Assembly: GCA_002082245.2 (NCBI GenBank)
Contig: NBTC02000002.1
Coordinates: 1,550,001-1,614,000 of the forward strand
Direction of reading: 5' to 3'
Origin: Yersinia enterocolitica
GTDB taxonomy: Bacteria; Pseudomonadota; Gammaproteobacteria; Enterobacterales; Enterobacteriaceae
DNA: 64,000 nt
Part shown: piece after piece, positions 14,500-53,887 of the stretch
Numbering within the stretch: the first letter of the stretch is position 1
Layout: each line of letters begins with the position of its first letter
Position numbers and translations under genes: made by a program
Notes under the pieces: model-generated
The model's input: the letters and a program-made list of their open reading frames with translations, nothing else
Database searches by the model: none
Told to the model about the DNA's origin: nothing

Positions 14500-14568
14500 A
14501 TGTCAGATAAAAATAAGCAACCTACTTTCTACATTCACGATTATGAAATAAATGATATAACCACTTGA
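14500..14568 (+). pseudogene. sbcB: 5' stub of sbcB left of the prophage
   Basis: The ATG at 14500 starts MSDKNKQPTFYIHDYE, which aligns with the N-terminus of exonuclease I (E. coli has TFLFHDYE at the same place). After HDYE the frame runs into phage DNA (INDITT) and stops at 14566. The same TFYIHDYE appears at the start of the intact copy at 52457. This is therefore the original start of the gene, separated from its body by the inserted prophage. Confidence 0.93.
14530..14543. other. attL core
   Basis: TACATTCACGATTA, identical to 52487-52500. Identity continues imperfectly on both sides (TGA against CGA to the right, TTTC against TTTT to the left). The left flank belongs to sbcB and the right flank to the phage. 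Confidence 0.88.
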
Positions 14569-14600
14569 AATATATATCATTATATAATGAAAACCTTTGG

Positions 14601-14624
14601 TTATGTACTCAGTTATGTACTCAA
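14601..14624. promoter_or_regulatory. Candidate integrase arm-type sites in attL
   Basis: Two direct copies of TTATGTACTCA, at 14601-14611 and 14613-14623, lie about 60-80 bases inside the left core. Related GTACT-centred motifs occur in attR (52284-52296, 52308-52319, 52319-52331). Repeats of one motif in both attachment regions are the pattern expected for arm-type binding sites of a tyrosine integrase. Confidence 0.6.
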
Positions 14625-14700
14625 TTTGTCCGCGAAATCTTTGGAATACTATCAACTCCCACTCTACCGCTAAAAAACCAATTGAATTCCTCTCCGCTAT

Positions 14701-14720
14701 TACTGTATAAATAAACAGTA
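14701..14720. promoter_or_regulatory. LexA (SOS) box upstream of the DinI-like operon
   Basis: TACTGTATAAATAAACAGTA fits the enterobacterial consensus TACTG(TA)5CAGTA, with CTG-N10-CAG intact. It ends 18 bases before the start codon at 14739, a position where LexA would block transcription. The three small genes downstream would thus be DNA-damage inducible. Confidence 0.88.
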
Positions 14721-14738
14721 AATTAGCGAGGTGATACA

Positions 14739-15014
14739 ATGGCAAGAAATCCTAAAGATGAATTTACAGGGATGAGGGAACTGACTTCTTTTGATACGGC
14801 TCACAGTGCCTTTGGTGAGTTCATTATTATGCGATCGTCATTCACCGATACCCTCACTGGCTTCAGGCAGATTGAGCCGGAGCATTACCCAGACCAACAA
14901 GTCATGATTCGTTTGGAAGCCGCTAAAAAACTAATTAGAGAACTACAGAGGCGCGTGGACTATATCGAGTCTGGTATTGAAGATGTTAACACTAAAACTT
15001 GTTATCACAGTTGA
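14739..15014 (+). CDS. Small SOS-operon protein, weakly BssS-like
   Basis: 91 residues with a good ribosome site (GCGAGGTGAT) directly after a LexA box. The middle and C-terminal part (DTAHSAFGEFIIM, then RLEAAKKLIRELQRRVDYIE) loosely resembles the BssS-like small regulators found in prophages. The resemblance is from memory and weak. It is first of three genes, nine bases before a DinI-like gene. Acidic-basic helical C-terminus; no membrane segment or signal peptide. Function unknown. Confidence 0.6.
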   Translation: MARNPKDEFTGMRELTSFDTAHSAFGEFIIMRSSFTDTLTGFRQIEPEHYPDQQVMIRLEAAKKLIRELQRRVDYIESGIEDVNTKTCYHS

Positions 15015-15023
15015 GAGGGATTT

Positions 15024-15266
15024 ATGAAAGTTGAACTGGTTTACGATAAGCGAAACGTGAAAGAGATACCAGGTGCCAATGAACTTATCCTGGCTGAACT
15101 AACCAAGCGTGTGCACCGTGCCTTCCCTAAAGCTGAGGTCAAGGTTAAGCCAATGCAAGCGAACGGCATCAATACCGACGCCAGCAAAGGTGATAAGGCT
15201 ATTCTCAATCGGCTGGTTGAGGAAATGTTTGATGAAGCAGATCAGTGGCTGGTTATCGATATTTAA
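15024..15266 (+). CDS. DinI-like protein 1
   Basis: 80 residues matching the DinI fold pattern: an N-terminal beta strand (MKVELVYDK), a helix with LAELTKRVHRAFP, a second strand with VKVKPM, and an acidic C-terminal helix ending FDEADQWLVID, comparable to the ESADDWF end of E. coli DinI. DinI binds RecA and alters filament stability and co-protease activity. In a prophage this can tune SOS-triggered induction. Lies nine bases after the preceding gene and 13 before a second DinI-like gene. Confidence 0.82.
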   Translation: MKVELVYDKRNVKEIPGANELILAELTKRVHRAFPKAEVKVKPMQANGINTDASKGDKAILNRLVEEMFDEADQWLVIDI

Positions 15267-15279
15267 TTGAGGGGGATTT

Positions 15280-15525
15280 ATGCTGCGTGTCGAAGTGACT
15301 ATAGATAAGCTGAACGCGAAGAGTTTTCCGGCTGGCTACACCAACGCACTTACTGAAGAATTAACGAATCGCCTTAATCGTAAATTTAGCGATTTTGACG
15401 TAAAAGTGAGGTTTGCGGGGGCAGATGGGTTAACGGTTCTTGGTGGGGGTAATGAGGACAAAAAGACGGTCGAAGAAATTTTACAGGATACGTGGGAAAG
15501 TGCTGATGATTGGTTCCAGCCTTAA
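15280..15525 (+). CDS. DinI-like protein 2
   Basis: 81 residues, closer to canonical DinI than its neighbour: starts LRVEVTIDK, contains GADGLTVLGGGNEDKK, and ends EEILQDTWESADDWF, nearly identical to the E. coli DinI C-terminus. Expected to bind RecA. It is the last gene of the LexA-box operon and is followed by an intrinsic terminator. Two diverged DinI paralogues in tandem suggest different effects on RecA, which is inference. Confidence 0.88.
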   Translation: MLRVEVTIDKLNAKSFPAGYTNALTEELTNRLNRKFSDFDVKVRFAGADGLTVLGGGNEDKKTVEEILQDTWESADDWFQP

Positions 15526-15553
15526 GCCACCAGCCAATAATGCGAATGTATAG

Positions 15554-15577
15554 ACCGGGCCATTAAGCCCGGTTTTG
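15554..15577 (+). terminator. Terminator after the DinI-like operon
   Basis: ACCGGGC-CATTAA-GCCCGGT is a 7-bp perfect stem followed by TTTTG. The same stem sequence recurs at 17820-17839, on the other side of the acyltransferase gene. Confidence 0.82.
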
Positions 15578-15765
15578 TATTTGGGTACCACCTCGATAGG
15601 CATCCCTCCCAACCATCCCCATGCGTGGGCATAGGCATGACTAGACCTATTCAGGGAAAATCATTGAAGTGTGGTAACTACTCGCTTAGTATTAACAATC
15701 TATTTTATATAATCACTGATTTTTTACAATGAAATCAACATGTTTGACAAAGGTTTACAAGAAAA

Positions 15766-17817
15766 ATGAAAGAATCACCACTAGTCCTGTCAAATAAAAA
15801 ATACCGCCCTGACATTGATGGATTAAGGGCGATTGCTGTAATACTTGTTTTATTTTTTCATGCTAAAGTATTCGGTGTTAATTCTGGATTTGTTGGTGTA
15901 GATGTTTTTTTTGTAATATCAGGATATTTGATAACATTAGGTATAAAAAATGGATTAGAAAAGGGTGATTTTTCTTTTGTTGATTTTTTCAAAAGAAGAT
16001 TATGGAGATTACAGCCTGTTTTCATAGCTTTAATAATTGTAGTAACAATAATAACTACACTAACATATCTTCCTGATGATTATTTAAAGTATACCAACAG
16101 TCTAAGATACGCATCTTCATTTTCATCAAATAATTACTTCTCCAATTTGAATAATGGATATTTTACAGATGATGTAAGCATTATGCCTTTGTTGCATACG
16201 TGGTCATTATCTGTGGAGTGGCAATGGTATTTATTGCTTCCTTTTTTAATGTTTGTATTTTTTAAATTACTTAACATCAAAAAATGGGCATATTGGATAT
16301 TACCATTTACAACATTGATGATAATAGGAATTCATTTCGGATCAGTTTCAATACAATTAGATGGAATAAAAAAACTATCTTTTGTTTTTAACGATAAAAA
16401 CTCACTAAAGTATTACTATAGTTTTTCAGGTCGTATTTTTGAAATGCTCATTGGTTCGTCTTTAGCTGTTATTGGAGTGTTGAAGGTTGACAGAATTCCG
16501 CTGTGGTTAAACTCGACTATTGGGTTTTGTTGTATTGTAATCATTGTTTCTATCGGGGTTAGTGATGGAATCTTGGAATTCTACCCAAATAAATATGCAC
16601 TACTCGTTTGTTTAAGCTCTGCCATTTTAATATATTTGGGTGGTTCAAAAAACAAAGGATTTGCAACAAAAATATTATCGATAAAACCAATAGTATTCAT
16701 TGGGTTGATATCATACTCTCTTTATATTTGGCATTGGCCGGTACTGGCATTTATTAGAAACTTAAGTATAAAAGAAACATGGAGCGTTATTTCATTAGCG
16801 TTACTTTTATCATTCTTACTTGCTATTTTCTCTTATCGTTATGTTGAGACTTTTTTCAGAAGAAAAAACTCATTATCCTTCTGGAAAACTTTAGTAGTTT
16901 TAGTGCTAATACCATATATCCTTGTATCCACACTGAACCATAAAAGTAAAGCTACTAGTGGCATTCCATCGCGATTAGGTAGCAGCTATATGAACTTAGT
17001 TCATAATAAAACGATTCAATACAATTGGATGGATAGAATAAGAAATGAATGCAATGTAGAGGATTTAAGTCTAATAATGCTTAATTGTCACTTTAATGAA
17101 GGCGCAAAAAAATCCGCGATTGTCATGGGAGACTCATACTCTGATCATTCTTGGCAGTTTTTGAAATCTATCATTAAAGATAATGATATATCACTAGAAT
17201 CAAGTTCACTTGGTGGATGCTTAGCTGTAGAAGGTGATGACCAATCTGAAAAAAATATATGTACAAATAGAACTAATGAAAATTACAATAAAATCAAAAA
17301 AGGGTTTTATCAGTATGTAATTATAAGTCAAACGTGGGGGAGATATATTAGTAATGAAAATCACTCCAACACCAGCGAAGCAAAGGAAAAACTAGAGAAA
17401 GGCCTTGAAAGCTCCATAACTAAAATAATTAATAGCAACGCCAAACCAATTATTATCATTGGGATTTTTGACGCTTATAAAAATCAAAATCCATTCTATC
17501 TGGCAAAAATACAGCAAAACTCTTGTGTGATGAAAAAATACAAATCAAGAGAATTATTAAAATCCACCTGTGATTTCGATAGTAATTATAAAAATGACGA
17601 ATATAGGATTTGGATTGATAATATGTTTTTACGGTTAAAAAATAAATTTCCCACCTTGATTTTAATAAACATGTATGACTTACAATGCTCATATGGGGTA
17701 TGTAAAACTGACATTAATGGCTATCCAGTGTATAGGGATTGGTCACATTTAACTGATTACTCATCGCATCAATTTGGCATTGAATACCTTAAGATGCATG
17801 GTAATATTTTCAAATAA
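15766..17817 (+). CDS. OafA-type O-antigen acyltransferase with SGNH domain
   Basis: 683 residues. The N-terminal about 390 residues are an acyltransferase-3 membrane domain with roughly ten hydrophobic segments. It opens with YRPDIDGLRAIAVILVLFFH, and the catalytic-type His lies at its end; FVGVDVFFVISGYLI follows. The C-terminal part carries an SGNH hydrolase-like domain: GDSYSDH near residue 455 and the catalytic-type D-x-x-H in DWSHLTD near residue 658. Such proteins acetylate lipopolysaccharide sugars and are typical serotype-converting phage genes that block re-adsorption. Base composition is much more AT-rich than its neighbours, and the gene stands alone between two identical-stem hairpins, so it is a moron. 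Confidence 0.88.
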   Translation: MKESPLVLSNKKYRPDIDGLRAIAVILVLFFHAKVFGVNSGFVGVDVFFVISGYLITLGIKNGLEKGDFSFVDFFKRRLWRLQPVFIALIIVVTIITTLTYLPDDYLKYTNSLRYASSFSSNNYFSNLNNGYFTDDVSIMPLLHTWSLSVEWQWYLLLPFLMFVFFKLLNIKKWAYWILPFTTLMIIGIHFGSVSIQLDGIKKLSFVFNDKNSLKYYYSFSGRIFEMLIGSSLAVIGVLKVDRIPLWLNSTIGFCCIVIIVSIGVSDGILEFYPNKYALLVCLSSAILIYLGGSKNKGFATKILSIKPIVFIGLISYSLYIWHWPVLAFIRNLSIKETWSVISLALLLSFLLAIFSYRYVETFFRRKNSLSFWKTLVVLVLIPYILVSTLNHKSKATSGIPSRLGSSYMNLVHNKTIQYNWMDRIRNECNVEDLSLIMLNCHFNEGAKKSAIVMGDSYSDHSWQFLKSIIKDNDISLESSSLGGCLAVEGDDQSEKNICTNRTNENYNKIKKGFYQYVIISQTWGRYISNENHSNTSEAKEKLEKGLESSITKIINSNAKPIIIIGIFDAYKNQNPFYLAKIQQNSCVMKKYKSRELLKSTCDFDSNYKNDEYRIWIDNMFLRLKNKFPTLILINMYDLQCSYGVCKTDINGYPVYRDWSHLTDYSSHQFGIEYLKMHGNIFK

Positions 17818-17819
17818 TA

Positions 17820-17839
17820 ACCGGGCATTTCTGCCCGGT
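17820..17839. terminator. Hairpin after the acyltransferase gene
   Basis: ACCGGGC-ATTTCT-GCCCGGT, a 7-bp stem starting three bases after the stop codon. It has no good T-run on the plus strand; on the minus strand the following bases are TTATTATTTG. It may stop transcription of either the acyltransferase gene or the late operon arriving from the right. Confidence 0.6.
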
Positions 17840-17843
17840 AAAC

Positions 17844-18035: not shown

Positions 18036-18047
18036 ATGACTCCCTAG

Positions 18048-21395: not shown

Positions 21396-21396
21396 A

Positions 21397-22134: not shown

Positions 22135-22147
22135 GGAAAAACTCCAA

Positions 22148-22172
22148 TAAAAAACCCGCACATTGGCGGGTT
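22148..22172 (-). terminator. Intrinsic terminator inside the late operon, after the secreted small protein
   Basis: On the minus strand AACCCGC-CAATGT-GCGGGTT is followed by TTTTATT. It lies 20 bases after the stop of the 115-residue gene and immediately upstream of the spike gene, so transcription of the spike, baseplate and fibre genes must pass through it. Confidence 0.8.
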
Positions 22173-22193
22173 CTGTGGGGCTAAGCTATTTAG

Positions 22194-22541: not shown

Positions 22542-22546
22542 TGCAT

Positions 22547-35748: not shown

Positions 35749-37014
35749 TTACTGCTGTTTCCCCAACATTGCCCAGACGCCCAGATCGCCTTCACTGGTG
35801 ATGTATCCATCAAGGGAGTAGCGCACCGCATCCCATAGGTGGTTGTGTTTATCCATTACAACAGGAAGCACATCACCCGTTAGACGGTCAGTTTTGTAGG
35901 AGTAGAGCCGCGCCTCATCAACCATGTGCTTACACCGCTCATGAATGATGATTTCTTCAAAGCCCTTTAGGTAAGTTATGCCATCCTCAACACTGCCGGG
36001 CCATTTTGATGCGGCGTCAATAACAAAGCCTTGCCGAGATAAGTAACTAATAGTCTCAGGACGGCTACCATCGCCATGAATGGGCCACTTACGCGCGCCG
36101 GGGATGCCGAGGTATTTCTTATCATCGCCAAATTTCCACTGTGTTAGCTGCTCTGCTGTTGCTCCCTCTTTTCCAGAGTAGAACTTCCATAGATCATCCA
36201 ACTCAACACCGACACCGTACGCCTCATATTCAATGTAAAGCCTTCGTCCAAGGATAAAGCAGCGCACCAGCGTGGATGGGTCATTTGCAAAACCAAAGTC
36301 GGCGCCAAAGAACAAACGGTCTGCATCCATCCACAAGTCATCGGAAAATGCCTCCACCCGATACTTACCGGAGAAAATAACCGCTTCACTAATCGCTCGA
36401 GGGAGTCCAAGCCAGATGTGTTCGTAGGCTTCGAAATCAATGCGCTTGCAATACATCATTTCTTGCTGGAGAACATCGGGGAAGAAAGCATTATCACAAT
36501 AGTTAACGTTGCGAATGATCACACCACCATCTGGCGGATCAGATTCATGTCGCTTCATCAGTGCATAAGTCGGGTCCGTCGCTTCCCGAGGGTTAAACGA
36601 TACCCATACTTCGGATTTATTGGCTCGAACGGTAGGGCCGAGAATATCCCAAGAATCCTGTGATACCGTCTGCGCTTCCTCCACCCAACAGATTTTGATG
36701 CCATGCATCGATTTAATACTGTTGATGTTGTTGCGCAGCCCTTTGAATGTAAATCGGGTACCATTCAGCCCTGTAATTTCATTGTTTTTTACAGTGTAAA
36801 AATGGTTGAGGCCCAGCGCATATATTTCAGCCTCCAACAGCGCTAACACGGAATCGCTGATGGAGTTTTGGAACTCACGCGCACACAAGATAATCATCGA
36901 GCTTATAGCCCCATGAATGATCAGAGACCTTGCAATCTCAACCGATTTACCACCACCACGCCCGCCGAAAGTCCAACGCCAACGAACGGAGCCAATCGGA
37001 GCGTCATACAACAC
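35749..37014 (-). CDS. Terminase large subunit, PBSX type
   Basis: 421 residues from a GTG start at 37014. Walker A is GGRGGGKS (residues 17-24), Walker B region ICWVEEAQ, and an RNase H-like nuclease domain follows with [12 protein letters not shown] giving the first metal-binding Asp. It packages DNA through the portal with the small subunit upstream. The frame is open upstream without any ATG as far as the end of terS, so the start is uncertain: an unusual start codon, or a lost base near the junction. The end ([11 protein letters not shown]) looks natural. Confidence 0.88.
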
Positions 37015-39902: not shown

Positions 39903-40961
39903 CTACAAGCATTCAGCTTGAATTTCTCGAATGTACTTCACAAACTCACCAGCGTCCAGGAAATAGCTTGGATATGCAGCCTTCAGGTTTCCTATGCTTT
40001 CAGTTGATACTAAAACAACTTGTACATGTGGGAGCTGCTCGGAGTTCGTTTCCCACTCAATATATGCAGTTGTGGCTTCATTGATTCTTTTTAACCCGAA
40101 ACTATTTATATCTACCGTCCCCGCAAGAGTGTCTAGGACTATGAGGTGATAGCTACCACTGTTTTTGCTTTCTGAGATATCCTTTATCGCAAACCGAAAC
40201 CCCAATAATTTATCAATAACTTGAAGTTTTTCCGTTTGGTCAACAACAGCTTTGTAGGTTTGCAATTTTGTCATGTGGGTATACGCTTCAACAGGAGGAC
40301 ACCCCTCCATGAGAGCGAAGGCGCTACCTACTAATGAGAAGTAGTCATTCCACTCGGTATCGGCCTCGCTAGACTTAATGGATTGCCCTACAAACGTACC
40401 CATTGTCTCAACTGCTGTAGCCCATGCGTGCTGAAGCTTGGTTCGAATCTGTATCTCTAGCAATAACCCATTATGATGAGGATTAGAGCTGCCTTGATAC
40501 TGATAGACCAAATGGATGCCTCGATATCCAGAATCTTTAGGCTGGTTTATATAATCTCGTTGCGACTTCAGTTCATGCTTGAATCTATTTTGCCCATTAT
40601 TGACATAACTTTCTTCAAGTTCCCTCACTGAAACAATGTCCTTGACGACAGCCCTAAGCCCGCCAAGATCTTGCATTCTTGCTAACTTCATTCCTGGAGA
40701 ACGATTCAACTTAGAAATAATTGATGGTATGCGCTTTAACCTTTGCGAAGCGACCCCATCCTGATCTGCGGCCTTCATCTTTCTACGCAGTGTCGTTTGG
40801 AAAGCATTCAAAGGGTGAACATACATCTCCCTGAGATTGTTTAATGCTTCTAGAGCCCAAAATAGATCATCCATCTTACAACCATCAATATCGCGCAGGA
40901 TTGAACCAGCTCTATTGATTTGCTTATTGCTGAATCTTAGCTCGACCATTTTCAAATCCAT
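39903..40961 (-). CDS. RelA/SpoT-domain protein, putative small alarmone synthetase
   Basis: 352 residues. The synthetase domain motifs are clear: RLKRIPSIISKL (residues 74-85), MQDLGGLR (96-103) with the catalytic-type Asp98, SGYRGIHLVY (144-153) with the stacking Tyr, and LEIQIRT (168-174) with the catalytic Glu169, then QHAWA. No HD hydrolase domain precedes it and no TGS/ACT domain follows. An uncharacterised C-terminal region of about 170 residues remains. It could make (p)ppGpp or another alarmone, or pyrophosphorylate tRNA as some toxSAS do. It is the first gene after Q and its leader terminator. No antitoxin-like gene is adjacent. Confidence 0.82.
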   Translation of the reverse strand: MDLKMVELRFSNKQINRAGSILRDIDGCKMDDLFWALEALNNLREMYVHPLNAFQTTLRRKMKAADQDGVASQRLKRIPSIISKLNRSPGMKLARMQDLGGLRAVVKDIVSVRELEESYVNNGQNRFKHELKSQRDYINQPKDSGYRGIHLVYQYQGSSNPHHNGLLLEIQIRTKLQHAWATAVETMGTFVGQSIKSSEADTEWNDYFSLVGSAFALMEGCPPVEAYTHMTKLQTYKAVVDQTEKLQVIDKLLGFRFAIKDISESKNSGSYHLIVLDTLAGTVDINSFGLKRINEATTAYIEWETNSEQLPHVQVVLVSTESIGNLKAAYPSYFLDAGEFVKYIREIQAECL

Positions 40962-45446: not shown

Positions 45447-46151
45447 ATGGAAAACAAAAGAGTCCTGACGACAGAACAGTTGGAAGATGCGATGCGTCTG
45501 AAGGCTTTGTATGAGTCAAAGAAAAAATCTTTAGGGATTACTCAGCAGGCGATTGCCAACGAACTTGATATTTCTCAGGGGGCTGTAGGTCATTATCTGA
45601 ATGGGCGAAACCCTCTCAACCTAAATGTTGCCGCTGTTTTTGCAAGTTTTCTACAGGTTCCTATATCAGAATTTAGTCCATCTCTTGCAAAAGAGGCATC
45701 CCGCTTATCACAAGTCTCCAACGTGTCATTTGTAGAGCAAAATACTCCCAAGGGGAGTTATCCATTAATTAGCTGGGTCAGTGCAGGCTCATGGTGTGAG
45801 GCTATAGAGCCCTATACCCTGAAAGATATCGATGAGTGGTATGATACTTCAGCTCACATTGAAGGTGATGGCTTTTGGTTGAGAGTCCAAGGTGACTCAA
45901 TGACATCCCCTGTAGGTGTCAGCATTCCAGAGGGAATGATTGTTCTGGTAGATACTGGGCGAGAAGCAAAAAATGGCAGCCTTGTTATCGCTAAATTAAC
46001 TGATGCCAACGAAGCCACATTCAAAAAATTAGTGACAGACGGAGGATCATCCTACCTTAAGCCCCTAAACCCTCAGTACCCATTAATCCCCATTAATGGA
46101 AACTGTAAAATCATTGGCGTTGTGGTAGAAGCTAAAATTATGTTCTCTTAA
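45447..46151 (+). CDS. CI-type prophage repressor
   Basis: 234 residues. The N-terminal helix-turn-helix is TQQAIANELDISQGAVGHYLNGR (residues 32-54). The C-terminal S24 peptidase domain has the cleavage site Ala113-Gly114 (WVSAGSW), catalytic Ser151 in GDSMTSP, and Lys193/194 in ATFKKL. All parts needed for RecA-stimulated self-cleavage are present, so the prophage should be SOS-inducible. It is divergent from cro and flanked by related operators on both sides. It ends before a poly-C run and a terminator. Confidence 0.93.
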   Translation: MENKRVLTTEQLEDAMRLKALYESKKKSLGITQQAIANELDISQGAVGHYLNGRNPLNLNVAAVFASFLQVPISEFSPSLAKEASRLSQVSNVSFVEQNTPKGSYPLISWVSAGSWCEAIEPYTLKDIDEWYDTSAHIEGDGFWLRVQGDSMTSPVGVSIPEGMIVLVDTGREAKNGSLVIAKLTDANEATFKKLVTDGGSSYLKPLNPQYPLIPINGNCKIIGVVVEAKIMFS

Positions 46152-46165
46152 AAACCACCTACCCA

Positions 46166-46177
46166 CCCCCCCCCCCC
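46166..46177. repeat. Poly-C tract after cI
   Basis: A run of 12 C directly downstream of the cI stop. It is non-coding. Runs of this length are often length-variable and prone to sequencing error. Confidence 0.75.
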
Positions 46178-46182
46178 AAGAA

Positions 46183-46212
46183 AAGGCCCACGGTTAACCT
46201 CGGGCTTTTTTT
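46183..46212 (+). terminator. Terminator after cI
   Basis: AGGCCC and TCGGGCTT ends pair around an inner GGTTAACC palindrome, followed by TTTTTTT. It would stop cI transcription before the left operators. Confidence 0.75.
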
Positions 46213-46274
46213 ATCGCCCAAATAAAAATAAATACCATTAAAATTCAAAAAGTTAATACTTATGATAATATTTT

Positions 46275-46315
46275 ATATACTTTTAGTATTGCAGATATTA
46301 AAACTTTTAGTATTA
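46275..46315. promoter_or_regulatory. oL operators upstream of the early left operon
   Basis: Two copies of the oR-type site: ATATACTTTTAGTATTG at 46275-46291 (13 of 17 to the reverse complement of the best oR site) and TAAAACTTTTAGTATTA at 46299-46315 (15 of 17). They lie just upstream of the plus-strand gene at 46353, the position of lambda oL/pL. Confidence 0.78.
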
Positions 46316-46352
46316 TTACCTCACCACCACACATAATTGCGTTGAGGATAAG

Positions 46353-46661
46353 ATGAAACACTCAGAGATTAACCATCAGGATATTCATAAAAAATTACGT
46401 GAGAGTAAATCCCACTGGTCGTATTTGTTTGATGCTAAACATTTTAACCCTAAATCAACTTACCAACTTCAAACTTGTTTTGTTGGTGAAGTTGAATACG
46501 CCATTTATGAACGGATTGAAAATTACTTTGTTCTTGTGGATTTTTTTAACAGTTACGAATCAGCAAATGAACAAGCTCGAAAAATAATTGATGAATGCGA
46601 AAAGTTTAAAAATTCAATTATTGGTTATTCTAATTATAAAGAAAGAAACTTGAATGCTTAG
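46353..46661 (+). CDS. Hypothetical protein, first early left gene
   Basis: 102 residues, starting 38 bases after the last oL-type site, with GAGGATAAG as ribosome site. The composition is Asn/Lys/Tyr-rich and AT-biased, with CFVGEVEYAIYERIENYF and an acidic-basic helical end (SANEQARKIIDECEKF). It has no known motif. The lambda N gene would be here, but no arginine-rich N-type peptide is visible at its N-terminus. Confidence 0.7.
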   Translation: MKHSEINHQDIHKKLRESKSHWSYLFDAKHFNPKSTYQLQTCFVGEVEYAIYERIENYFVLVDFFNSYESANEQARKIIDECEKFKNSIIGYSNYKERNLNA

Positions 46662-46735
46662 TTTAACGACTCATGTACTGACGCCAATCGAATACATGAG
46701 TCTAGCCAAATACACATACCTGAGAGGTTAGTTAT

Positions 46736-47050
46736 ATGGTTAAGTCAAATAGTATCATAATTAAAAGTGCAACTACAAACTCATCATCTGAGAAAATTAT
46801 TTTAGTTGATAAAGAAGCTCGACATGTAGCCCAAAAATTGGCAAGTGACTATAAAACTGAATACGGTTGGTTATTAGCTAATTGGAAGTTGAGAGAGGCT
46901 TACGGGATATACATTGAAGAGCCGTTCCCTAGCGTCGGTGATGTATTGGGTAATTATACTATCACGCATGCTTGCAAAGAAACTGGCTGTATTATTAAGA
47001 CTCAGACACGCTATTTACAGAGGAATAAAGGAGCTGGAATTTATGCGTAA
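46736..47050 (+). CDS. Hypothetical early protein, 104 residues
   Basis: 104 residues with AGAGG upstream of the start. It has a Ser/Asn-rich start, a helix with EARHVAQKLASDYKTEYGWLLANWKLREAYG, and a C-terminal GDVLGNYTITHACKETGCIIKTQTRYLQRN. No family recognised. Its stop overlaps the next gene start by eight bases. Confidence 0.68.
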   Translation: MVKSNSIIIKSATTNSSSEKIILVDKEARHVAQKLASDYKTEYGWLLANWKLREAYGIYIEEPFPSVGDVLGNYTITHACKETGCIIKTQTRYLQRNKGAGIYA

Positions 47051-47414
47051 TTTATCGACATCAAACCAAAACACACCAGGTATCATCTCTGGCTCCGGTG
47101 GTTCTTCCGAAGGTGTATACATACAAGACAAGAAAGACATCTTGTACAAAGAACCTGATAATTTTACACCATTAAATTTTGGTAATTTCCCTCCGAAAGG
47201 GCAAATAGAATACCTTGCTTATACTGCTAGCAACGCTGATCGTTATGCAAAGCAATTAAGGTATTTATATACAATGCTCATTGATGACGCAATTAGAAAG
47301 GTTGATGAAGATGTTGCAGCGAGGCTGTGGAGCCTTACAGAAGAGTTGGTAATAATGACATCCCAATCATCCAGAAATGCTAAAAAATTGATGGATGAAA
47401 ATAATGAAAATTGA
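47043..47414 (+). CDS. Hypothetical early protein, 123 residues
   Basis: 123 residues from the ATG at 47043, preceded by AAGGAG; an in-frame start at 46914 lies well inside the preceding gene and is rejected. Product: Ser/Gly-rich start (SGSGGSSEGVY), DKKDILYKEPDNFTPLNFGNFPPKGQIEYLAY, then a long helix (KQLRYLYTMLIDDAIRKV). No family recognised. The end overlaps the next start by 20 bases. Confidence 0.65.
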   Translation: MRNLSTSNQNTPGIISGSGGSSEGVYIQDKKDILYKEPDNFTPLNFGNFPPKGQIEYLAYTASNADRYAKQLRYLYTMLIDDAIRKVDEDVAARLWSLTEELVIMTSQSSRNAKKLMDENNEN

Positions 47415-47829
47415 AAAAGTTGACCCAGCCAGATTCGAAGAGTGGGAATTCGATTTAATTGATGATGGTGGTATCGAGGTTGCATTCCAATTAAGACCGG
47501 AACCTGTTTATTTCGTTATGCGTCATGGTCGCCATAAGAAATGCTTTAGCCGTGAAACTGCGATTAATCGTCTCGCTCACTTCATGACTGAAAAAGTATT
47601 TAAACGCGCAGGTGTTAAATCTCGGGTTGGCGAAAAATACACACAAGTGGATGGCTGTATTCACTGGGAAAGAGGTGAGCCATCACCAAGATATATAGCC
47701 TCACATAATCGCTGTATGCGTCGCATTCGTCGCCTGCTAGCCAAGCAACGCGAAATGCTTAAATGGCAGAAGAAATATGAGAAGTGGTCAAACCAGCATA
47801 TTGAGCTGATGAAAACCAAACCTTATTAA
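47395..47829 (+). CDS. Hypothetical early protein, basic C-terminus
   Basis: 144 residues (141 if the ATG at 47404 is used). An N-terminal beta-rich domain (EEWEFDLIDDGGIEVAFQLRPEPVYFVMRHGRHKKCF) is followed by a very basic helix (RCMRRIRRLLAKQREMLKWQKKYEKW), suggesting nucleic-acid contact. No family recognised. Confidence 0.68.
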   Translation: MKIMKIEKVDPARFEEWEFDLIDDGGIEVAFQLRPEPVYFVMRHGRHKKCFSRETAINRLAHFMTEKVFKRAGVKSRVGEKYTQVDGCIHWERGEPSPRYIASHNRCMRRIRRLLAKQREMLKWQKKYEKWSNQHIELMKTKPY

Positions 47830-47860
47830 TTAAGTAATCGTAAAACAAAATATTAACTAT

Positions 47861-47895
47861 GGCCTTCGGGTTAGGACTCCCCACACCTAAAGGCC
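47861..47895 (+). promoter_or_regulatory. Bulged hairpin upstream of the 117-residue gene
   Basis: GGCCT (47861-47865) pairs with AGGCC (47891-47895); after a five-base bulge TCGGG, TTAGG (47871-47875) pairs with CCTAA (47886-47890). The 10-base loop ACTCCCCACA contains CUCCCC, complementary to GGGGAG-type ribosome sites. It ends 22 bases before the start codon at 47917 and has no T-run, so it looks like a regulatory leader structure. Confidence 0.5.
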
Positions 47896-47916
47896 GAAAA
47901 ATAAGGTAATTCGAAT

Positions 47917-48270
47917 ATGAGCAATCTTGAATTAATTGGCAGATATCGCAACCGACTGGTAACCGCAAAGCTGGATTCATTGCAACGGAATACCGGCAGC
48001 ACCTGCGTAATTAAAAAATCACCCACGGGGAAAATCATTTCAGTTCAATTGACCACTGAAGTACTAACCCGGGCGCTGGAGCAATACGAACTAGTAGCGA
48101 TCGAGGGGTTGGGGAAAGCAACGGCAAGTGGCCGCATCCTGGAACTCTATCAATCCTGCTTAAAGAAAATGGGCGGTATGTCCTCTGTGGGGCATGCATT
48201 CATGGATGACCTGATAGAAGAGTCGATCTGCGCATCTGACAAGCCAGCCACCAGCGCGGTGAAATCATGA
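47917..48270 (+). CDS. Hypothetical early protein, 117 residues
   Basis: 117 residues after AAGG and the bulged hairpin at 47861. The product has a basic N-terminal part (ELIGRYRNRLVTAKLDSLQRNTGS), and VQLTTEVLTRALEQYELVAIEGLG in the middle. The last bases overlap the next gene by four (ATGA). No family recognised. Confidence 0.68.
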   Translation: MSNLELIGRYRNRLVTAKLDSLQRNTGSTCVIKKSPTGKIISVQLTTEVLTRALEQYELVAIEGLGKATASGRILELYQSCLKKMGGMSSVGHAFMDDLIEESICASDKPATSAVKS

Positions 48271-48485
48271 CGCTATCAGGTAACCGCATTCCGCTTCGTA
48301 TCTACATCGGGGCCACTCAGATTTTAAACCGGTACCGCCGTGGAGCTGTTCGCCCTCGCCGCACGTATCAACATGGCTATCTGTCTTTACGCATTACCCA
48401 CCGCTGGCGGTTGTTATCGAAAGACGGCGGGCAGCACTGGGAGGCCATGAGCCACCAGCGATACAACAAAGAATTGGGGGTTTAA
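48267..48485 (+). CDS. Small basic protein, possibly ParE-like
   Basis: 72 residues, rich in Arg and Tyr: GNRIPLRIYIGATQILNRYRRGAVRPRR, then LSLRITHRWRLLSKDGGQHWEAMSHQRYNKELG. The pattern of the second half resembles small phage proteins annotated as ParE-like toxin domains; this is from memory and weak. It overlaps the preceding gene by four bases. No partner antitoxin was identified. Confidence 0.6.
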   Translation: MTLSGNRIPLRIYIGATQILNRYRRGAVRPRRTYQHGYLSLRITHRWRLLSKDGGQHWEAMSHQRYNKELGV

Positions 48486-48887
48486 GTGATGGGAATAAGC
48501 AAAGCAAAAAACCAGGAGCGCATTGATGTTGGATCGCTACTGACGATTACAGACCACCTTGAGGCATTGAATGTTGCTAACGCCACTCTGGACAGAATTG
48601 AGTCACAACTAACTAAAGCCAGTGATAAGGCCAGTGACTGGTATATCCGAGCCACTACCGCACATAAAACGTGGCATTGGATCAGGACTCAGATTTGCGG
48701 GCAGCTATCTGTTTTAAGGCAGAAGGAAAAAGAAAGGAATATCAATCTGCATATTTCGAAAGACCACTTTTTGATTCAAGCATTACGGCAACGAGTAACA
48801 GCGGAAGAATTTGAACAGTGCGTTCTGATTGCTAATGAAAAGGCCACTTCGGTGCATAGCGGGTTTATTCAGGATAATGAGGACTAA
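48486..48887 (+). CDS. Hypothetical early protein, 133 residues
   Basis: 133 residues from GTG at 48486, or 132 from the ATG at 48489, which is more likely. It is mostly helical, with LLTITDHLEALNVANATLDRIESQL and HISKDHFLIQALRQRVTAEEFEQC. It ends five bases before the Rha-like gene. No family recognised. Confidence 0.66.
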   Translation: MMGISKAKNQERIDVGSLLTITDHLEALNVANATLDRIESQLTKASDKASDWYIRATTAHKTWHWIRTQICGQLSVLRQKEKERNINLHISKDHFLIQALRQRVTAEEFEQCVLIANEKATSVHSGFIQDNED

Positions 48888-48891
48888 CAAA

Positions 48892-49734
48892 ATGAGTCAG
48901 TTAATTAGCACCAATAGCAATAATCCAATGATGGGAAGCCGTGAAATAGCGGTGGTAGTCCTTAAAGAACACAAAGAAGTCTGTCGTGATATTCGCGTCA
49001 TGCTTGTGCAGCTTTACGGGGGCGAAGAGAAGGACTACATCCGTAGCGCAAATCTGCTCAACCTTACGAATCAAGGGGTTAGTTGCGTTCATTACGATAT
49101 GACTAATCCTAATGCATGGGAATACTTTCTTGACTTTGAACACTCGCAATGCCTTGCGACTGGCTATGACGCCCTCCGTCGTATGTCGATGGTTAAACAA
49201 TGGCGAGCTATGAAGGAAGAACTGGAGCAACCACGCATCGCAGTACAGCCAGCACCCCAGGAAAACAGCATGAACAATGACATTCTTTCCCTGGCTCGCG
49301 TTGTGGCAGAAGCAACCGCATCGGCAACAATGAAAGCGGTAATTGATATTGTTGGCATTCAGAAGTACCAACCCGTAGTTGAACCAGTTGTAGCTATCGC
49401 GCCACCAGCACCAGAAGCCTTGCAGGTCAGCCACCACACGCCAGATAGCGGACAATCTGAATATGCCCTTGTGTCTGATCTGTCGTGGGCTTGTGGGTTA
49501 TCAGATGATGCCTGCCGCCGATTGACTACGTTCTCGAAGTTACCGACACGACTGACCAATGGTGAGCGAGGCCATTTGCAGATCCACCGTGAGTCATTTA
49601 TGGCGGCGGCTCAAACCTTGCTTGATGAGTCCACGCCGCCCACCGGCAAACTTAAACGATGGCAGCATCCAGTGTTTGGCGGCTTCACCTTGCGCCTGAA
49701 ATCTGGAAATAACGATGGGGAGAAGGCGCAATGA
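48892..49734 (+). CDS. Rha-like phage regulatory protein
   Basis: 280 residues from the ATG at 48892 with TGAGGA upstream; a longer frame starts inside the preceding gene and is rejected. The N-terminal part matches the Rha/antirepressor pattern: MMGSREIAVVVLKEHKEVCRDIRVML, followed by a region with YEYFLD-like AWEYFLDFEHSQCLATGYDALRR. A Pro/Ala/Glu-rich linker and a C-terminal domain (GERGHLQIHRESFMAAAQTLL) follow. Rha proteins interfere with growth in IHF-deficient hosts and may act as antirepressors; the role here is inferred. Confidence 0.72.
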   Translation: MSQLISTNSNNPMMGSREIAVVVLKEHKEVCRDIRVMLVQLYGGEEKDYIRSANLLNLTNQGVSCVHYDMTNPNAWEYFLDFEHSQCLATGYDALRRMSMVKQWRAMKEELEQPRIAVQPAPQENSMNNDILSLARVVAEATASATMKAVIDIVGIQKYQPVVEPVVAIAPPAPEALQVSHHTPDSGQSEYALVSDLSWACGLSDDACRRLTTFSKLPTRLTNGERGHLQIHRESFMAAAQTLLDESTPPTGKLKRWQHPVFGGFTLRLKSGNNDGEKAQ

Positions 49735-49955
49735 ATATCAGCTATATCGATCATGGCGTAACTGCATCACTGACACTTACTAGCTGGTTGCCTTATGTTC
49801 GCCAGCATAACCGCTGCGTGGATGCTGTTTTGCTGCGTATCGGCAGTGTTCAGACAAAAAATAAAGGCTTCATTCGTCGCACAACCGTTATTACCGGACG
49901 TACGCCGCTGATCATGCATGCCTATAAGGTGGTTCTGGCTGAGGTGAAACGGTAA
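49731..49955 (+). CDS. Hypothetical early protein, 74 residues
   Basis: 74 residues, overlapping both neighbours by four and one bases (ATGA and TAATG-type junctions). Basic and Val/Arg-rich, with TSWLPYVRQHNRCVDAVLLRIGSVQ. No family recognised. Confidence 0.66.
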   Translation: MNISYIDHGVTASLTLTSWLPYVRQHNRCVDAVLLRIGSVQTKNKGFIRRTTVITGRTPLIMHAYKVVLAEVKR

Positions 49956-50365
49956 TGACAAAAATCCAACAAAAACGACTTTGTGATTATGAACAATTTG
50001 TTTTGAACTTAATTTGCGAAGCCTATATGTATCACCAGATTGCAAAACATCGCCGACCCGTATATCGCCATAAGTACGGGGACTTTGCCATAGACCGCAC
50101 CTCGTTACGCGGTTTTATTGGTACATACCTTGAAGGTAATGAGACGTCAGCGGAGCGGCGAATAAAGCGCTACCACGCCATTTTAGACTGGAAGGAGATG
50201 GAAAAAACACCAAGAGGCTATTTCATTAATTGGGGAACAATTGCCACCCTAAAGCCTCGCGGTATTCAGTGGATTAACGCTTGCCTTAATCGGTTCGGTG
50301 AAATGATTCAGGATATGGGGCCGGAAGCGGTGGCCAGTGAGCTGGGGGAGAACATGCAATGGTAG
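49955..50365 (+). CDS. Hypothetical early protein, 136 residues
   Basis: 136 residues. It contains CDYEQFVLNLICEAYMYHQIAKHRRP, then FAIDRTSLRGFIGTYLEGNETSAERRIKRYHAILDWKEME, which looks helical and could bind DNA. No family recognised. It overlaps the next gene by seven bases. Confidence 0.66.
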   Translation: MTKIQQKRLCDYEQFVLNLICEAYMYHQIAKHRRPVYRHKYGDFAIDRTSLRGFIGTYLEGNETSAERRIKRYHAILDWKEMEKTPRGYFINWGTIATLKPRGIQWINACLNRFGEMIQDMGPEAVASELGENMQW

Positions 50366-50706
50366 AAAGCAACGTGTTTGAACTGGCTAGCATCATTAAA
50401 TCGGCCTGCGGCGACCCTAGTGATATGACCGATGCTATCTGGAAAGCAGGTTATCGCAAACCAGAACGTACATCCGAAGAGCTGGTAGTGCTGACCATTG
50501 ATTCTATCTCTGCATATGTTGGCCTGGATTTGCCCTATGAGTGTTGGCCTAAGAATTTAAATGAAGTTTTAGAAGGGGAGCTGAACGAATTGTTCGGTGA
50601 GGTACTTCACGATGATGAGAAAGCCCACCCAGGCAAACCTAATTTCGCTTATATCGCTAAGTCTATTCTGGCAGCTGGCTATCGCAAGGGGGCCACTAAT
50701 GGGTAA
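50359..50706 (+). CDS. Hypothetical early protein with repeated AGYRK motif
   Basis: 115 residues. The motif AGYRK occurs twice, in IWKAGYRKPERT and at the end in ILAAGYRKGAT, each after a short amphipathic helix, a feature often seen in enterobacterial phage early proteins of unknown role. Acidic middle (NEVLEGELNELFGEVLHDDEK). It overlaps the next small gene by eight bases. Confidence 0.66.
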   Translation: MVESNVFELASIIKSACGDPSDMTDAIWKAGYRKPERTSEELVVLTIDSISAYVGLDLPYECWPKNLNEVLEGELNELFGEVLHDDEKAHPGKPNFAYIAKSILAAGYRKGATNG

Positions 50707-50779
50707 GAAAGCCGATATCCATGATGACTGGTACGGGTGTTGTGATATCGCAATACCTTCACTTGGCGGTGCCAAATGA
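50699..50779 (+). CDS. Very small early protein, 26 residues
   Basis: ATG at 50699 with AAGGGGG upstream, reading MGKKADIHDDWYGCCDIAIP and six more residues. It overlaps the preceding gene by eight bases and the next by four, so translational coupling is likely. A CC pair suggests metal or disulfide chemistry. Function unknown. Confidence 0.5.
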   Translation: MGKKADIHDDWYGCCDIAIPSLGGAK

Positions 50780-50931
50780 AATTTAAATGTACAGGCAAGT
50801 GGAACGGTGCACCATTCGAGCGGGTTACTGAGGCAGAAGACGAAGCTGATTGCTACGGGCATTGGCACTGGTGGGCGGCAATGGCTGAAGCCATTATTAC
50901 TGATTTTGTTATGGAGGTATCTGATGTCTAG
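50776..50931 (+). CDS. Small early protein, 51 residues
   Basis: ATG at 50776 overlaps the stop of the preceding small gene (ATGA). The product has FKCTGKWNGAPFERVTEAED, DCYGHWHWWAAMAEAI and an acidic end. It overlaps the AlpA-like gene start by eight bases. No family recognised, but tight packing of starts and stops supports coding. Confidence 0.55.
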   Translation: MKFKCTGKWNGAPFERVTEAEDEADCYGHWHWWAAMAEAIITDFVMEVSDV

Positions 50932-51115
50932 CACCGATATGATTGAAGAGAAAGAAGTGATGGCTAAGCTCAGGATCTCTTCTCGCATGACAATCTGGAA
51001 GTACACAAAGATTTATAATTTTCCTCTACCAGTGAGGACGCACCCAAAGCAATACTTACTGGCAGAGGTCGAGCAATGGATACTCAACGGCGGGGTTAAC
51101 CAGCGAGCTTCTTAA
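50924..51115 (+). CDS. AlpA-like regulator, probable excisionase
   Basis: 63 residues from the ATG at 50924, with GGAGG seven bases upstream. It has the winged-helix AlpA/excisionase pattern: EEKEVMAKLRISSRMTIWKYTK, then NFPLPVRTHPKQYLLAEVEQWI. AlpA-like proteins direct excision or act as integrase regulators. Its 3' end overlaps the 3' end of the convergent integrase gene by 20 bases. Confidence 0.85.
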   Translation: MSSTDMIEEKEVMAKLRISSRMTIWKYTKIYNFPLPVRTHPKQYLLAEVEQWILNGGVNQRAS

Positions 51116-52298
51116 TATGCCAAAATATCTTCTCGGCATACAGTTCATAAGCTTCGCGCTGTTCTTCAATCCAGTCATGCTTGTTATAAACAGCCATGAT
51201 GCCGCCTAGTTCGTGGCCCAGCATTTTTTCAATTACATGCGGGGCCACCCCTTCTTCAGACAATCTAGTTGCGAGGGTTCGGCGGAAATCATGCGCTGTC
51301 CATACCCCTGCATTAACAACGTTCCTAATCCTGCCAATATAACGATTAGCAGCAGCTATCGTCATTGGAGCATTAAGCTTTTGCCCTGGGAATAGTACGT
51401 TTCCGTAAGTCAGTTTTGCCTTTTCAAAGAGAGGGAGTACCTGGCTGAAGATTGGCCGACGAATTATTTTATTCGTTTTGGATTTTTCGGCCGGAACAAT
51501 CCAAAGCTTGTCTTCTTCGTTAAAATCACTAAGTTCTGACAGCCTTAATTCTCCATTCCTTGCGCCCCACAACATGAGCATCTGATGAAGCAGCTTATTA
51601 GATGTTGACGCCCTGCTACGTTCGATAGCCAGCCATATGCGAGCCAATTCATTGTAAGTAAGAACCTTGTCCCCTACCGCTGGTTTCTCACCTATATCTC
51701 GAGGGCTGATTTTCATAAGGCTACAGCCATCAATAAATTGACGCCTGATACACCAATTAATCGCTGACCGAAGTTGTACTAAAAGATGACGAGCGCGGCG
51801 CTGGTTTATTTTTTCTTCTTCAGTAAATAAATCCATCCAGTTTCTAACTGTTATTTCATCAATAGGCACACCAGGGAAAGCGTTAGACATGTTCTTTATG
51901 ACGGTACATCTATAAAGCTGCTGCGTCTTATCCCTTAAGGAGACGCTCACGTATGTCTCTTCCCAGTATGTAAGGCAGTCTTTAACTGTTGGGCTTTTTA
52001 TGTTTTTGTTTTGACTGGTGAGCAATCGTGGATCTAATCCTCGAGCTAAGTTCTCACGGAAGTCAGCAACTTTGTTTCTTGCGTCTTTTAACGTTACAGC
52101 CGGGTATCGCCCCAAACCAATACGGTGTTGCTTACCTTCCCATCGAAAGCGATACTGAAAAGTTATTACGCCCTTTGGTGATACCCTTATCCCAAGCCCA
52201 TCCAAATCCGTTACTTCTGGTGCTCCTGAATATGGTTTACCATACAGAGCGCGTAATTTTGTATCACTGATAGCCATTTTATTTTTTGTACTCAACAT
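51096..52298 (-). CDS. int: Tyrosine integrase, P4 type
   Basis: 400 residues, or 393 from the Met at 52277, which has equally weak ribosome sites. An N-terminal DUF4102-type arm-binding domain (ISDTKLRALYGKPYSG, GLGRYPAVTLKDARNKV) is followed by a core-binding and a catalytic domain. Catalytic residues: Arg in ARNGELRLSEL, His-x-x-Arg in HDFRRTLATRL, His in MLGHELGG, and the nucleophile Tyr in AVYNKHDW. It lies next to attR and transcribes away from it, the normal place. It uses the 5' end of sbcB as its attachment site. Confidence 0.93.
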   Translation of the reverse strand: MLSTKNKMAISDTKLRALYGKPYSGAPEVTDLDGLGIRVSPKGVITFQYRFRWEGKQHRIGLGRYPAVTLKDARNKVADFRENLARGLDPRLLTSQNKNIKSPTVKDCLTYWEETYVSVSLRDKTQQLYRCTVIKNMSNAFPGVPIDEITVRNWMDLFTEEEKINQRRARHLLVQLRSAINWCIRRQFIDGCSLMKISPRDIGEKPAVGDKVLTYNELARIWLAIERSRASTSNKLLHQMLMLWGARNGELRLSELSDFNEEDKLWIVPAEKSKTNKIIRRPIFSQVLPLFEKAKLTYGNVLFPGQKLNAPMTIAAANRYIGRIRNVVNAGVWTAHDFRRTLATRLSEEGVAPHVIEKMLGHELGGIMAVYNKHDWIEEQREAYELYAEKIFWHIKKLAG

Positions 52299-52331
52299 TA
52301 ATAGTGATTTTGTACTAACTTGGTACTCAAT
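52284..52331. promoter_or_regulatory. Candidate integrase arm-type sites in attR
   Basis: Three related motifs in one orientation: TTTGTACTCAAC (52284-52296), TTTTGTACTAACT (52308-52319) and TTGGTACTCAATA (52319-52331). They share GTACT with the two attL copies at 14601-14624. They lie between the integrase start and the right core, so integrase binding could also repress its own gene. Confidence 0.6.
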
Positions 52332-52456
52332 ATCACATGGACTATCTTAAACATCAATATACAAACACATACATTGAATTACGCACAAATACATAAGTCA
52401 CATTAACCCATTGAAATTAATGTACAAACTTGGCAAACAAAGAGCATATAAATACA

Positions 52457-53887
52457 GTGAAAGACAAGCCAATACAAAAGACGTTTTACATTCACGATTA
52501 CGAGACTTTTGGTCAGCGTCCGGCATTGGACCGGCCGGCCCAGTTTGCCGGGGTGCGCACCGATTTGGATTTCAACATTATCGAAGAGCCATTGGTCATT
52601 TACTGTGCTCCCGCCGATGACTATCTGCCACAGCCAGAGGCTGTGATGATAACCGGTATCACGCCACAGCATGCCTTAGCCAATGGCGTGAATGAGGCAG
52701 AATTTGCCCGCCAAATCCATCAGGCTTTCAATGTGCCGGGCACTTGTATCCTCGGTTACAACAATATTCGTTTTGATGATGAAGTTAGTCGCAATATTTT
52801 CTACCGCAATTTTTACGATCCCTATGCCTATAGCTGGCAAGGAGGGAATTCCCGCTGGGATCTGTTAGATGTGATGCGGGCGTGTTACGCCCTGCGCCCA
52901 GAAGGTATTGTCTGGCCGGAAAATGAAGATGGCCTGCCGAGTTTCAAGCTTGAGCATCTGACCAAAGCCAATGGTGTTGAGCATTTGCATGCCCATGATG
53001 CGATGTCAGATGTGCATGCCACCATTGCGATGGCGAAATTGGTCAAACAGGCGCAACCCCGCCTATTCGACTATTTATATCAACACCGCAGTAAGCATAA
53101 AATAAACGCACTGATTGATATCGCGGAGATGACGCCGTTGGTTCATGTCTCCGGCATGTTTGGCGCGGCACGAGGCAATACCAGTTGGGTTGCGCCGCTG
53201 GCATGGCATCCTGAGAATAAAAATGCGGTGATTATGTGTGACCTGGCCGGTGATATGTCGCCATTGCTGGCGTTGGATAGCGATACACTGCGCGAGCGTC
53301 TATATACCCGCCGCGACAAACTCAATGCACAAGATGCAGCGGTGCCACTGAAACTGGTGCACATCAATAAATGCCCGGTACTGGCTCCCGCTAAAACTTT
53401 ATTACCGGAAAATGCTGATCGTTTGGGCATTGATCGCCAACGTTGCCTGCAAAATTTGCAATTATTGCGGCAAAATCCGCAAGTACGTGAAAAAGTGGTG
53501 GCACTGTTCGCCGAAGCCGAACCTTTTGCGGTATCCGATGATGTCGATGCACAACTGTATAATGGCTTCTTCAGCGATGCCGACCGCGCCACCATGAAGA
53601 TCATTTTACAAACTGAACCGCAAAACCTGCCCGCACTGGATTTGACCTTTCAAGATCCACGGCTGGAAGCGCTATTTTTCCGCTTTCGCGCCCGTAATTA
53701 CCCCAATACGCTGACTGACAGTGAGCAACAGCGTTGGCTGGAACATCGCCGCGAAGCCCTCAATCCTGAAAGAGTGCAGGACTACGTGCTGCAACTGGAA
53801 CAATTCTATAACCAGTATGAAGATGATAAAGAGAAGCTGGCACTGCTGAAAGCACTGTTTGAGTATGCCAGAGGCTTAGTGAGCTAG
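52457..53887 (+). CDS. sbcB: Exodeoxyribonuclease I (start supplied by the prophage)
   Basis: 476 residues from the GTG at 52457, matching the 475 of E. coli; a TTG at 52430 would add nine residues. ExoI degrades single-stranded DNA 3'-5' and acts in recombination and mismatch repair. The DEDDh exonuclease domain starts FYIHDYETFG (first Asp and Glu), with NNIRFDDEVSRNIFYRNFYDPY and HDAMSDVHATIAMAKL (His and last Asp), followed by the SH3-like and C-terminal domains. The first codons up to ACGTTT come from phage DNA; from TACATT onward they belong to the host gene. Promoter and ribosome site are therefore phage-derived; the GTG and distant AAAGAG suggest modest translation. Confidence 0.93.
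   Translation: MKDKPIQKTFYIHDYETFGQRPALDRPAQFAGVRTDLDFNIIEEPLVIYCAPADDYLPQPEAVMITGITPQHALANGVNEAEFARQIHQAFNVPGTCILGYNNIRFDDEVSRNIFYRNFYDPYAYSWQGGNSRWDLLDVMRACYALRPEGIVWPENEDGLPSFKLEHLTKANGVEHLHAHDAMSDVHATIAMAKLVKQAQPRLFDYLYQHRSKHKINALIDIAEMTPLVHVSGMFGAARGNTSWVAPLAWHPENKNAVIMCDLAGDMSPLLALDSDTLRERLYTRRDKLNAQDAAVPLKLVHINKCPVLAPAKTLLPENADRLGIDRQRCLQNLQLLRQNPQVREKVVALFAEAEPFAVSDDVDAQLYNGFFSDADRATMKIILQTEPQNLPALDLTFQDPRLEALFFRFRARNYPNTLTDSEQQRWLEHRREALNPERVQDYVLQLEQFYNQYEDDKEKLALLKALFEYARGLVS
52487..52500. other. attR core
   Basis: TACATTCACGATTA, identical to 14530-14543. It encodes Tyr-Ile-His-Asp-Tyr of exonuclease I, an essential stretch containing the first catalytic Asp, which explains why it is conserved and usable as a phage attachment site. 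Confidence 0.88.

What the first reader, a model, noticed from the sequence alone, without database searches (positions are those of the whole stretch)
14500..52500. Prophage splits sbcB and replaces its promoter, ribosome site, start codon and first codons
The left copy keeps ATG and codons for MSDKNKQPTFYIHDYE then stops. The right copy reads MKDKPIQKTFYIHDYE from a GTG in phage DNA and continues through a full exonuclease I of 476 residues. Both N-termini have equal length, so the phage carries an almost length-exact substitute. ExoI is a host DNA-recombination enzyme, so the lysogen makes it under phage-end control with a GTG start and a poor ribosome site. This could alter ExoI level or tie it to excision.
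Basis: partly seen in the sequence, partly recalled or inferred. Interest (0 to 1): 0.72.

Follow-up and report, generated by a model that had tools for sequence, protein, structure and literature searches.

The report
Prophage end re-starts host exonuclease gene
A prophage sits inside the bacterial DNA-repair gene sbcB and gives it a new start codon and first codons, and likely also a promoter hidden inside the phage's integrase gene, so the repair enzyme is predicted to stay in production; the insertion site itself is already known.

Summary
A 38-kb prophage splits sbcB at the codons for FYIHDYE. The host's own start is stranded at the left end (ATG 14500, 22 codons, stop); the right end reads MKDKPIQKTFYIHDYE from GTG 52457 into an intact 476-residue ExoI. 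23 of 24 same-genus genomes have the native ATG start. The site is known (phages 2851, Sf101), and 577 of 5,426 complete E. coli genomes hold a matching phage end. All 44 unique phage ends examined supply an in-frame start. Two things look new. (1) Integrase codons 12-16 carry, antisense, ATATGGTTTACCAT. They are the most synonymously constrained window of the gene, and the 12-mer ATGGTTTACCAT also lies upstream of sbcB in 16 of 78 prophage-free relatives, against none in 520,678 background positions. It is likely the sbcB promoter, but 7 of 34 integrases lack it. (2) Some genomes lost the prophage yet kept the phage start and an integrase stub, mostly with this element. Replacement of a gene's 5' end by an element is known (dusA, prfC). 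Promoter activity and ExoI level were not measured.

The parts
14500..14568 (+). stranded native sbcB start: ATG, 16 native codons (to DYE), 6 phage codons and a stop
   Evidence: same start in 23 of 24 same-genus genomes
14524..14546 (+). left core copy (attL side)
14547..52480 (.). prophage, approximate limits (crossover lies within the cores)
50924..51115 (+). AlpA-like excisionase/regulator, overlapping the 3' end of int
   Evidence: PHROG 66 excisionase, E 1.5e-7; no Pfam match
51096..52277 (-). tyrosine integrase, 393 aa (an ATG at 52298 is also possible), divergent from sbcB
   Evidence: Phage_integrase and Arm-DNA-bind_3; PHROG 1
52215..52243 (+). predicted sbcB promoter inside int: TTCTGG 52215-52220, 17-base spacer, TACCAT 52238-52243; 12-mer ATGGTTTACCAT 52232-52243
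   Evidence: synonymous constraint; same 12-mer upstream of native sbcB elsewhere; coordinates
52250..52456 (+). predicted untranslated leader of the sbcB transcript, crossing the int start
   Evidence: inferred from the element; no unusual fold
52457..52492 (+). phage-supplied GTG start and codons MKDKPIQKTFYI
52481..52503 (+). right core copy (attR side)
52457..53887 (+). chimeric sbcB, exonuclease I of 476 aa

Best explanation
[quoted passage not shown] Shown: the split, the intact chimeric frame, the in-frame start in all 44 unique phage ends examined, the synonymous constraint on the element, the same 12-mer upstream of native sbcB in other genera, and genomes that kept a phage-type 5' end after losing the prophage. 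Inferred: that the element is the sbcB promoter (TTCTGG-17-TACCAT, transcription start near 52250, leader about 207 bases), that sbcB is transcribed from it in the lysogen, and that its strength differs from the native signals. Excision would restore the native start and promoter.
For: Frame control: in-frame start in 44 of 44 unique ends against 3 and 4 of 44 in the other frames; 21 of 21 against 2 and 0 in a non-redundant set. Isolated phages carry the start in attP. Codons 12-16 of int: first of 270 windows for codon identity given the same residue, 0.851 against a mean of 0.393; first again after codon-usage correction with 34, 23 and 20 representatives, the overlap with alpA coming second. 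27 of 34 integrases have the 12-mer with at most one mismatch, 26 of these with TTC 17 bases before TACCAT. 12-mer upstream of sbcB in 16 of 78 natives, 0 in 520,678 background positions. -10-like position agrees with TACTCT in K-12. Fossil ends with intact sbcB. Precedents for element-borne promoters: dusA, prfC, mutL.
Against: The element matches the sigma-70 consensus poorly (about 7 of 12) and the scans did not list it. 7 of 34 integrases lack it, five of them joined to sbcB. None of the 23 same-genus natives and not K-12 has it. One of the five clear stubs (L232) lacks it and one (L201) has a mismatch. No RNA or protein data. Why host and phage share the 12-mer is unexplained.
Confidence: 0.65

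Rival explanations
1. The phage end supplies the start codon and first codons, but sbcB is transcribed from another promoter: between int and the GTG, or by read-through of the rightward phage genes that end in alpA; the element inside int serves something else, such as a protein-binding site.
For: No terminator-like site was found between 50700 and 52480, and genes 45447-51115 point toward sbcB. 7 of 34 integrases lack the element, five of them at sbcB.
Against: In the L192 relic about 136 bases between element and start are gone while the 12-mer and the last 86 bases remain; in E. coli GPEC1292 and CP61_Sichuan everything beyond int codon 30 is replaced by IS150, so read-through of alpA transcripts is gone. 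The native copies of the 12-mer lie where a promoter of sbcB would lie.
Confidence: 0.25
2. The prophage acts as a switch that lowers or silences ExoI in the lysogen and restores it on excision, as SpyCI does with mutL.
For: The GTG start has a weaker anti-SD energy than the closest native site. An element in dusA lowers expression of its target (PMC8409611 section 13). int and an excisionase-like gene are intact here.
Against: In-frame starts are kept in all 44 unique ends and 26 of them are ATG; sbcB frames are intact in the seven relics; GTG or TTG starts occur in 22 of 53 native sbcB outside the genus.
Confidence: 0.15
3. The in-frame phage codons are a by-product of the shared core, with no role in making ExoI.
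For: Part of the 12 codons is the core itself, which the integrase needs anyway.
Against: Start and open frame extend beyond the core in 44 of 44 ends, against 3 and 4 of 44 in the other frames; sbcB stays intact behind the phage end in relics.
Confidence: 0.04

Closest known systems
Phages 2851 and Sf101, integrating in the 5' end of sbcB (PMC4159516, passages read)
   Same: Same gene, same codons (13-bp core CGTAATCGTGAAA, here ATTCACGATTAYG on the sbcB strand), related integrase (Sf101 62.5% identical), same int-attP order.
   Different: Another genus; the passages read do not discuss the start, the first codons or a promoter for sbcB.
dusA islands such as IMEVchUSA3, and SXT in prfC (PMC8409611, passages and section 13 read)
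   Same: Element in the 5' end of a host gene supplies a new promoter and an N-terminus of the same length; measured there for dusA.
   Different: Other genes and integrases; the promoter was shown by reporter there, here it is predicted and lies inside the int reading frame.
SpyCI islands in Streptococcus pyogenes mutL (PMC3430984, abstract and passages read)
   Same: 5' end of a DNA-repair gene; [quoted passage not shown]
   Different: There the promoter is described as a rescue after decay in one strain; here the element lies in intact integrases of many phages and is constrained.

Membership tests
sbcB-integrating phages (2851/Sf101 kind) | integration in the 5' end of sbcB at the TTCACGATTACG core | tested here: met
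sbcB-integrating phages (2851/Sf101 kind) | related tyrosine integrase divergent from sbcB | tested here: met
sbcB-integrating phages (2851/Sf101 kind) | active excision and re-integration | not testable with these tools
   int and an AlpA-like gene are present; no induction data
5'-end-replacing elements (dusA/prfC kind) | element supplies start codon and in-frame N-terminus | tested here: met
5'-end-replacing elements (dusA/prfC kind) | element supplies the promoter | tested here: inconclusive
   comparative evidence for; consensus scans negative; no expression data
regulatory switch (SpyCI kind) | target gene off when integrated, on when excised | not testable with these tools
   needs RNA or protein measurements

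The most novel reading that the evidence does not exclude
sbcB phages have written a host-gene promoter into the synonymous positions of their own integrase, running outward against int, and part of the enterobacterial sbcB promoters and non-ATG starts seen today are relics of such phage ends kept after the prophage was lost.
Probability: 0.3. Interest if true: 0.75.

Novelty: new variant of a known kind. Interest (0 to 1): 0.5.

Why it matters
About one in ten complete E. coli genomes (577 of 5,426) holds such a phage end, joined to sbcB in every row that was listed (30 and 40 of 578 records), so a host recombination enzyme would be started by phage DNA in many strains. If the promoter reading holds, one stretch of DNA encodes the recombinase on one strand and, in its synonymous positions, the promoter that keeps the split host gene running on the other. 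That makes testable how phages avoid harming the gene they land in, and how lost prophages leave new regulatory ends on core genes.

Tried and rejected
Sigma-70 consensus scans listed one rightward hit near the start (TTGGCA-17-TACAGT, 52430-52458); it overlaps the GTG and the count is at chance level (1 found, 1.5 expected). The idea that native 12-mers are decayed integrase was tested with an integrase score on the flanking codons, leaving out codons 20-22: supported for five stub-type relics (Stouffer z 8.68), not for the 11 close natives (1.01) or the 8 far ones (-0.27). With codons 20-22 included the values are 10.50, 2.83 and 2.41. Single natives L220 and L228 (p 0.018 and 0.010, among 24 tests) do not survive correction. 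A regulon site is unlikely: 0-2 exact copies per genome in ten genomes. Leader structure: z -1.10, 0.02 and -0.21, nothing unusual. A general weakness of phage-supplied starts was not seen: 26 of 44 are ATG. The codon-shuffle test (mean score 18.4, shuffles 9.6, largest shuffle mean 12.8) is kept only as support: its matrix came from natives chosen for their match, related integrases are not independent, and in 9 of 34 at least 58 of 300 shuffles scored as high. In one search the bin labelled '-35 hexamer' was misplaced by six bases; numbers here are re-binned by position, the alignment is ungapped (which inflates flank mismatches), and it holds five of the seven relics (L201 and L232 left out). 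17 of the 87 family genomes with sbcB were not fetched for the relic survey. Scans of genome contigs for the integrase gave 14 loci.

Full report
Check. The window holds two copies of the ExoI motif codons, at 14524-14546 and 52481-52503 (0.01 expected). The left copy follows ATG 14500 and is cut after DYE by phage codons INDITT and a stop; the right copy follows GTG 52457 and runs into a 476-residue ExoI. The closest same-genus genome (G021, 98% ExoI identity) reads straight through from the native start. 23 of 24 same-genus genomes have the native ATG. The exception, G022, has the phage-type N-terminus at a contig edge; its integrase, 93% identical, sits elsewhere, its end breaking at TTTTACATT|GGTGATTATC. 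A Yersinia pekkanenii record has the same integrase end, so the window is most likely from Yersinia (inference).

Known part. The integrase belongs to the family of phages mEp234, HK544 and Sf101 (63-68% DNA identity over the listed records). Sf101 and 2851 are reported to integrate in the 5' end of sbcB with a 13-bp core (PMC4159516, passages read). 577 of 5,426 complete E. coli genomes match the int 5' part plus the attP side of mEp234, 573 over at least 80% of it; sbcB is among the features under the match in all 30 rows listed there and all 40 rows of a repeat with the Sf101 end. With the whole int included, 517 genomes match over at least 80%. In the order-wide sample 21 of 394 genomes had the integrase at E<=1e-80, and 18 of the 21 loci, the window's own included, are joined to sbcB.

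The substitute N-terminus is general. Isolated phages carry it in attP: MTDTDKQPTFLFHDY in mEp234 and HK544, MTGTDKQ in Sf101, GTG-started MTVKNNSVQNTFLFHDYE in SEN34. The 45 rows less L158, a false core match, give 44 unique ends (two of them, L201 and L205, from the relative survey). All 44 have an in-frame start 11-21 codons before HDY with no stop between (26 ATG, 12 GTG, 6 TTG), against 3 and 4 in the two other frames. In a non-redundant set it is 21 of 21 against 2 and 0.

A hidden element. Int codons 12-16 ([H/Y]GKPY) are written [C/T]AT GGT AAA CCA TAT in most of the integrases, which is ATATGGTTTACCAT on the sbcB strand. Among 34 integrases (56-100% identical to the window's, below 92% nucleotide identity to each other) this window has the highest codon identity given the same residue (0.851, mean 0.393, first of 270). 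Corrected for codon usage it stays first with 34, 23 and 20 representatives. The next peak is the 3' end of int, which overlaps alpA: a built-in positive control. 26 of 34 have the exact 12-mer ATGGTTTACCAT and 1 more has one mismatch, all at one offset; 26 of these 27 have TTC where a -35 box would lie, 17 bases before TACCAT. Seven lack it, five of them joined to sbcB.

The same element stands upstream of native sbcB. Of 78 relatives without integrase or recognised stub, 16 carry the 12-mer with at most one mismatch within 260 bases upstream, 11 of them 79-104 bases before HDY. The rest of the same loci, 520,678 positions counted on both strands and much of it sbcB itself, has none. In five of ten genomes scanned an exact copy lies just upstream of sbcB (two of these have a second copy elsewhere); the window's genome has a single copy, the phage one. 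K-12 lacks it but has TACTCT 76 bases before HDY, where TACCAT lies in 7 of 11 natives (73-77). None of the 23 same-genus natives has it. Integrases L256 and L257, with the same GKPY residues but not at sbcB, differ from it at 4 positions. I take it as a weak promoter; this is inference.

Relics. Of 97 sbcB loci searched for integrase in the upstream 900 bases, 9 had a hit in the expected orientation at E<=1e-3 and none in the other. Four are long matches (L205, L210, L215, L219), five are stubs (L201, L207, L212, L232, L233; matched int codons ending at 27-49). L192 (E 0.042) and L225 (E 0.16) are weaker cases. The stretches before HDY match phage ends at 71-90% over 47-250 bases, for L201 in the int-side half; L225 matches only around the element. 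sbcB is open in all seven. L207, L212, L225, L233 and L192 hold the exact 12-mer, L201 has one mismatch and L232 lacks it, as does its nearest phage L176. Two E. coli strains (GPEC1292, CP61_Sichuan) keep a 30-codon int stub with the element beside IS150, plus the phage start. In the five aligned relics with the element, the 12-mer has 0 of 60 mismatches, the 17 bases upstream 15 of 85, further upstream 47 of 115 and the 30 bases downstream 70 of 150 (re-binned). L207, L212, L233 and L192 were found by similarity outside the 12-mer; L225 was not. The phage-type 5' end thus goes together with an intact sbcB after the prophage is gone; that sbcB is expressed from it is inferred.

Limits. Whether hosts took the element from phages, phages from hosts, or both converged is open: outside the promoter positions native flanks do not look like decayed integrase. 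Natives with the element more often start with GTG or TTG (12 of 16, against 10 of 37 others outside the genus with a called start), but relatedness was not controlled. ExoI level, transcript ends and any link with excision were not measured.

Literature. Element-borne promoters and N-termini are known for dusA and, as cited there, prfC (PMC8409611, section 13 and passages), and a promoter within an int pseudogene for mutL (PMC3430984, abstract and passages). Searches for sbcB with prophage, integration site, promoter, start codon or expression terms and for replaced promoters in general listed no paper whose title or shown start of abstract describes a phage-supplied start or promoter for sbcB; papers other than the three named were seen only as listings.

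Noticed in passing
window 34164-35516: A transposase gene lies between the terminase large subunit (35749-37014) and the DUF2213 head protease (32691-33956), where a portal gene would be expected; no open frame of portal size other than named genes was seen, so the prophage is likely unable to make particles.
   Followed up: partly
window 39903-40961: RelA_SpoT-domain protein that matches the PADLOC candidate defence family PDC-S33 (E 4.5e-117).
   Followed up: partly
window 14739-15525: A 91-codon frame and two DinI-like genes lie just right of attL, now downstream of the host's stranded sbcB start region and possibly of its promoter.
   Followed up: partly
window 15766-17817: O-antigen acetylase-like gene (PHROG 6705); O-acetyltransferase genes also lie near attP in SEN34 and Sf101.
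   Followed up: partly
L173 / L255: The 93% identical integrase and phage end join host DNA at TTTTACATT|GGTGATTATC, a possible secondary attachment site, while sbcB in the same genome also has the phage-type start.
   Followed up: partly
window 14597-14622 and 52286-52330: Repeated GTACTCA-type motifs at both phage ends, likely integrase arm sites; those at the right end lie in the predicted sbcB leader.
   Followed up: no
window 45447-51115: Rightward phage genes end at alpA and point at sbcB through antisense int with no terminator-like site found; read-through into sbcB on induction is possible.
   Followed up: no
L199: A relative without a recognised integrase stub has 73% identity over 86 bases to the L117 phage end before HDY and a GTG start; possibly an older relic.
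   Followed up: no
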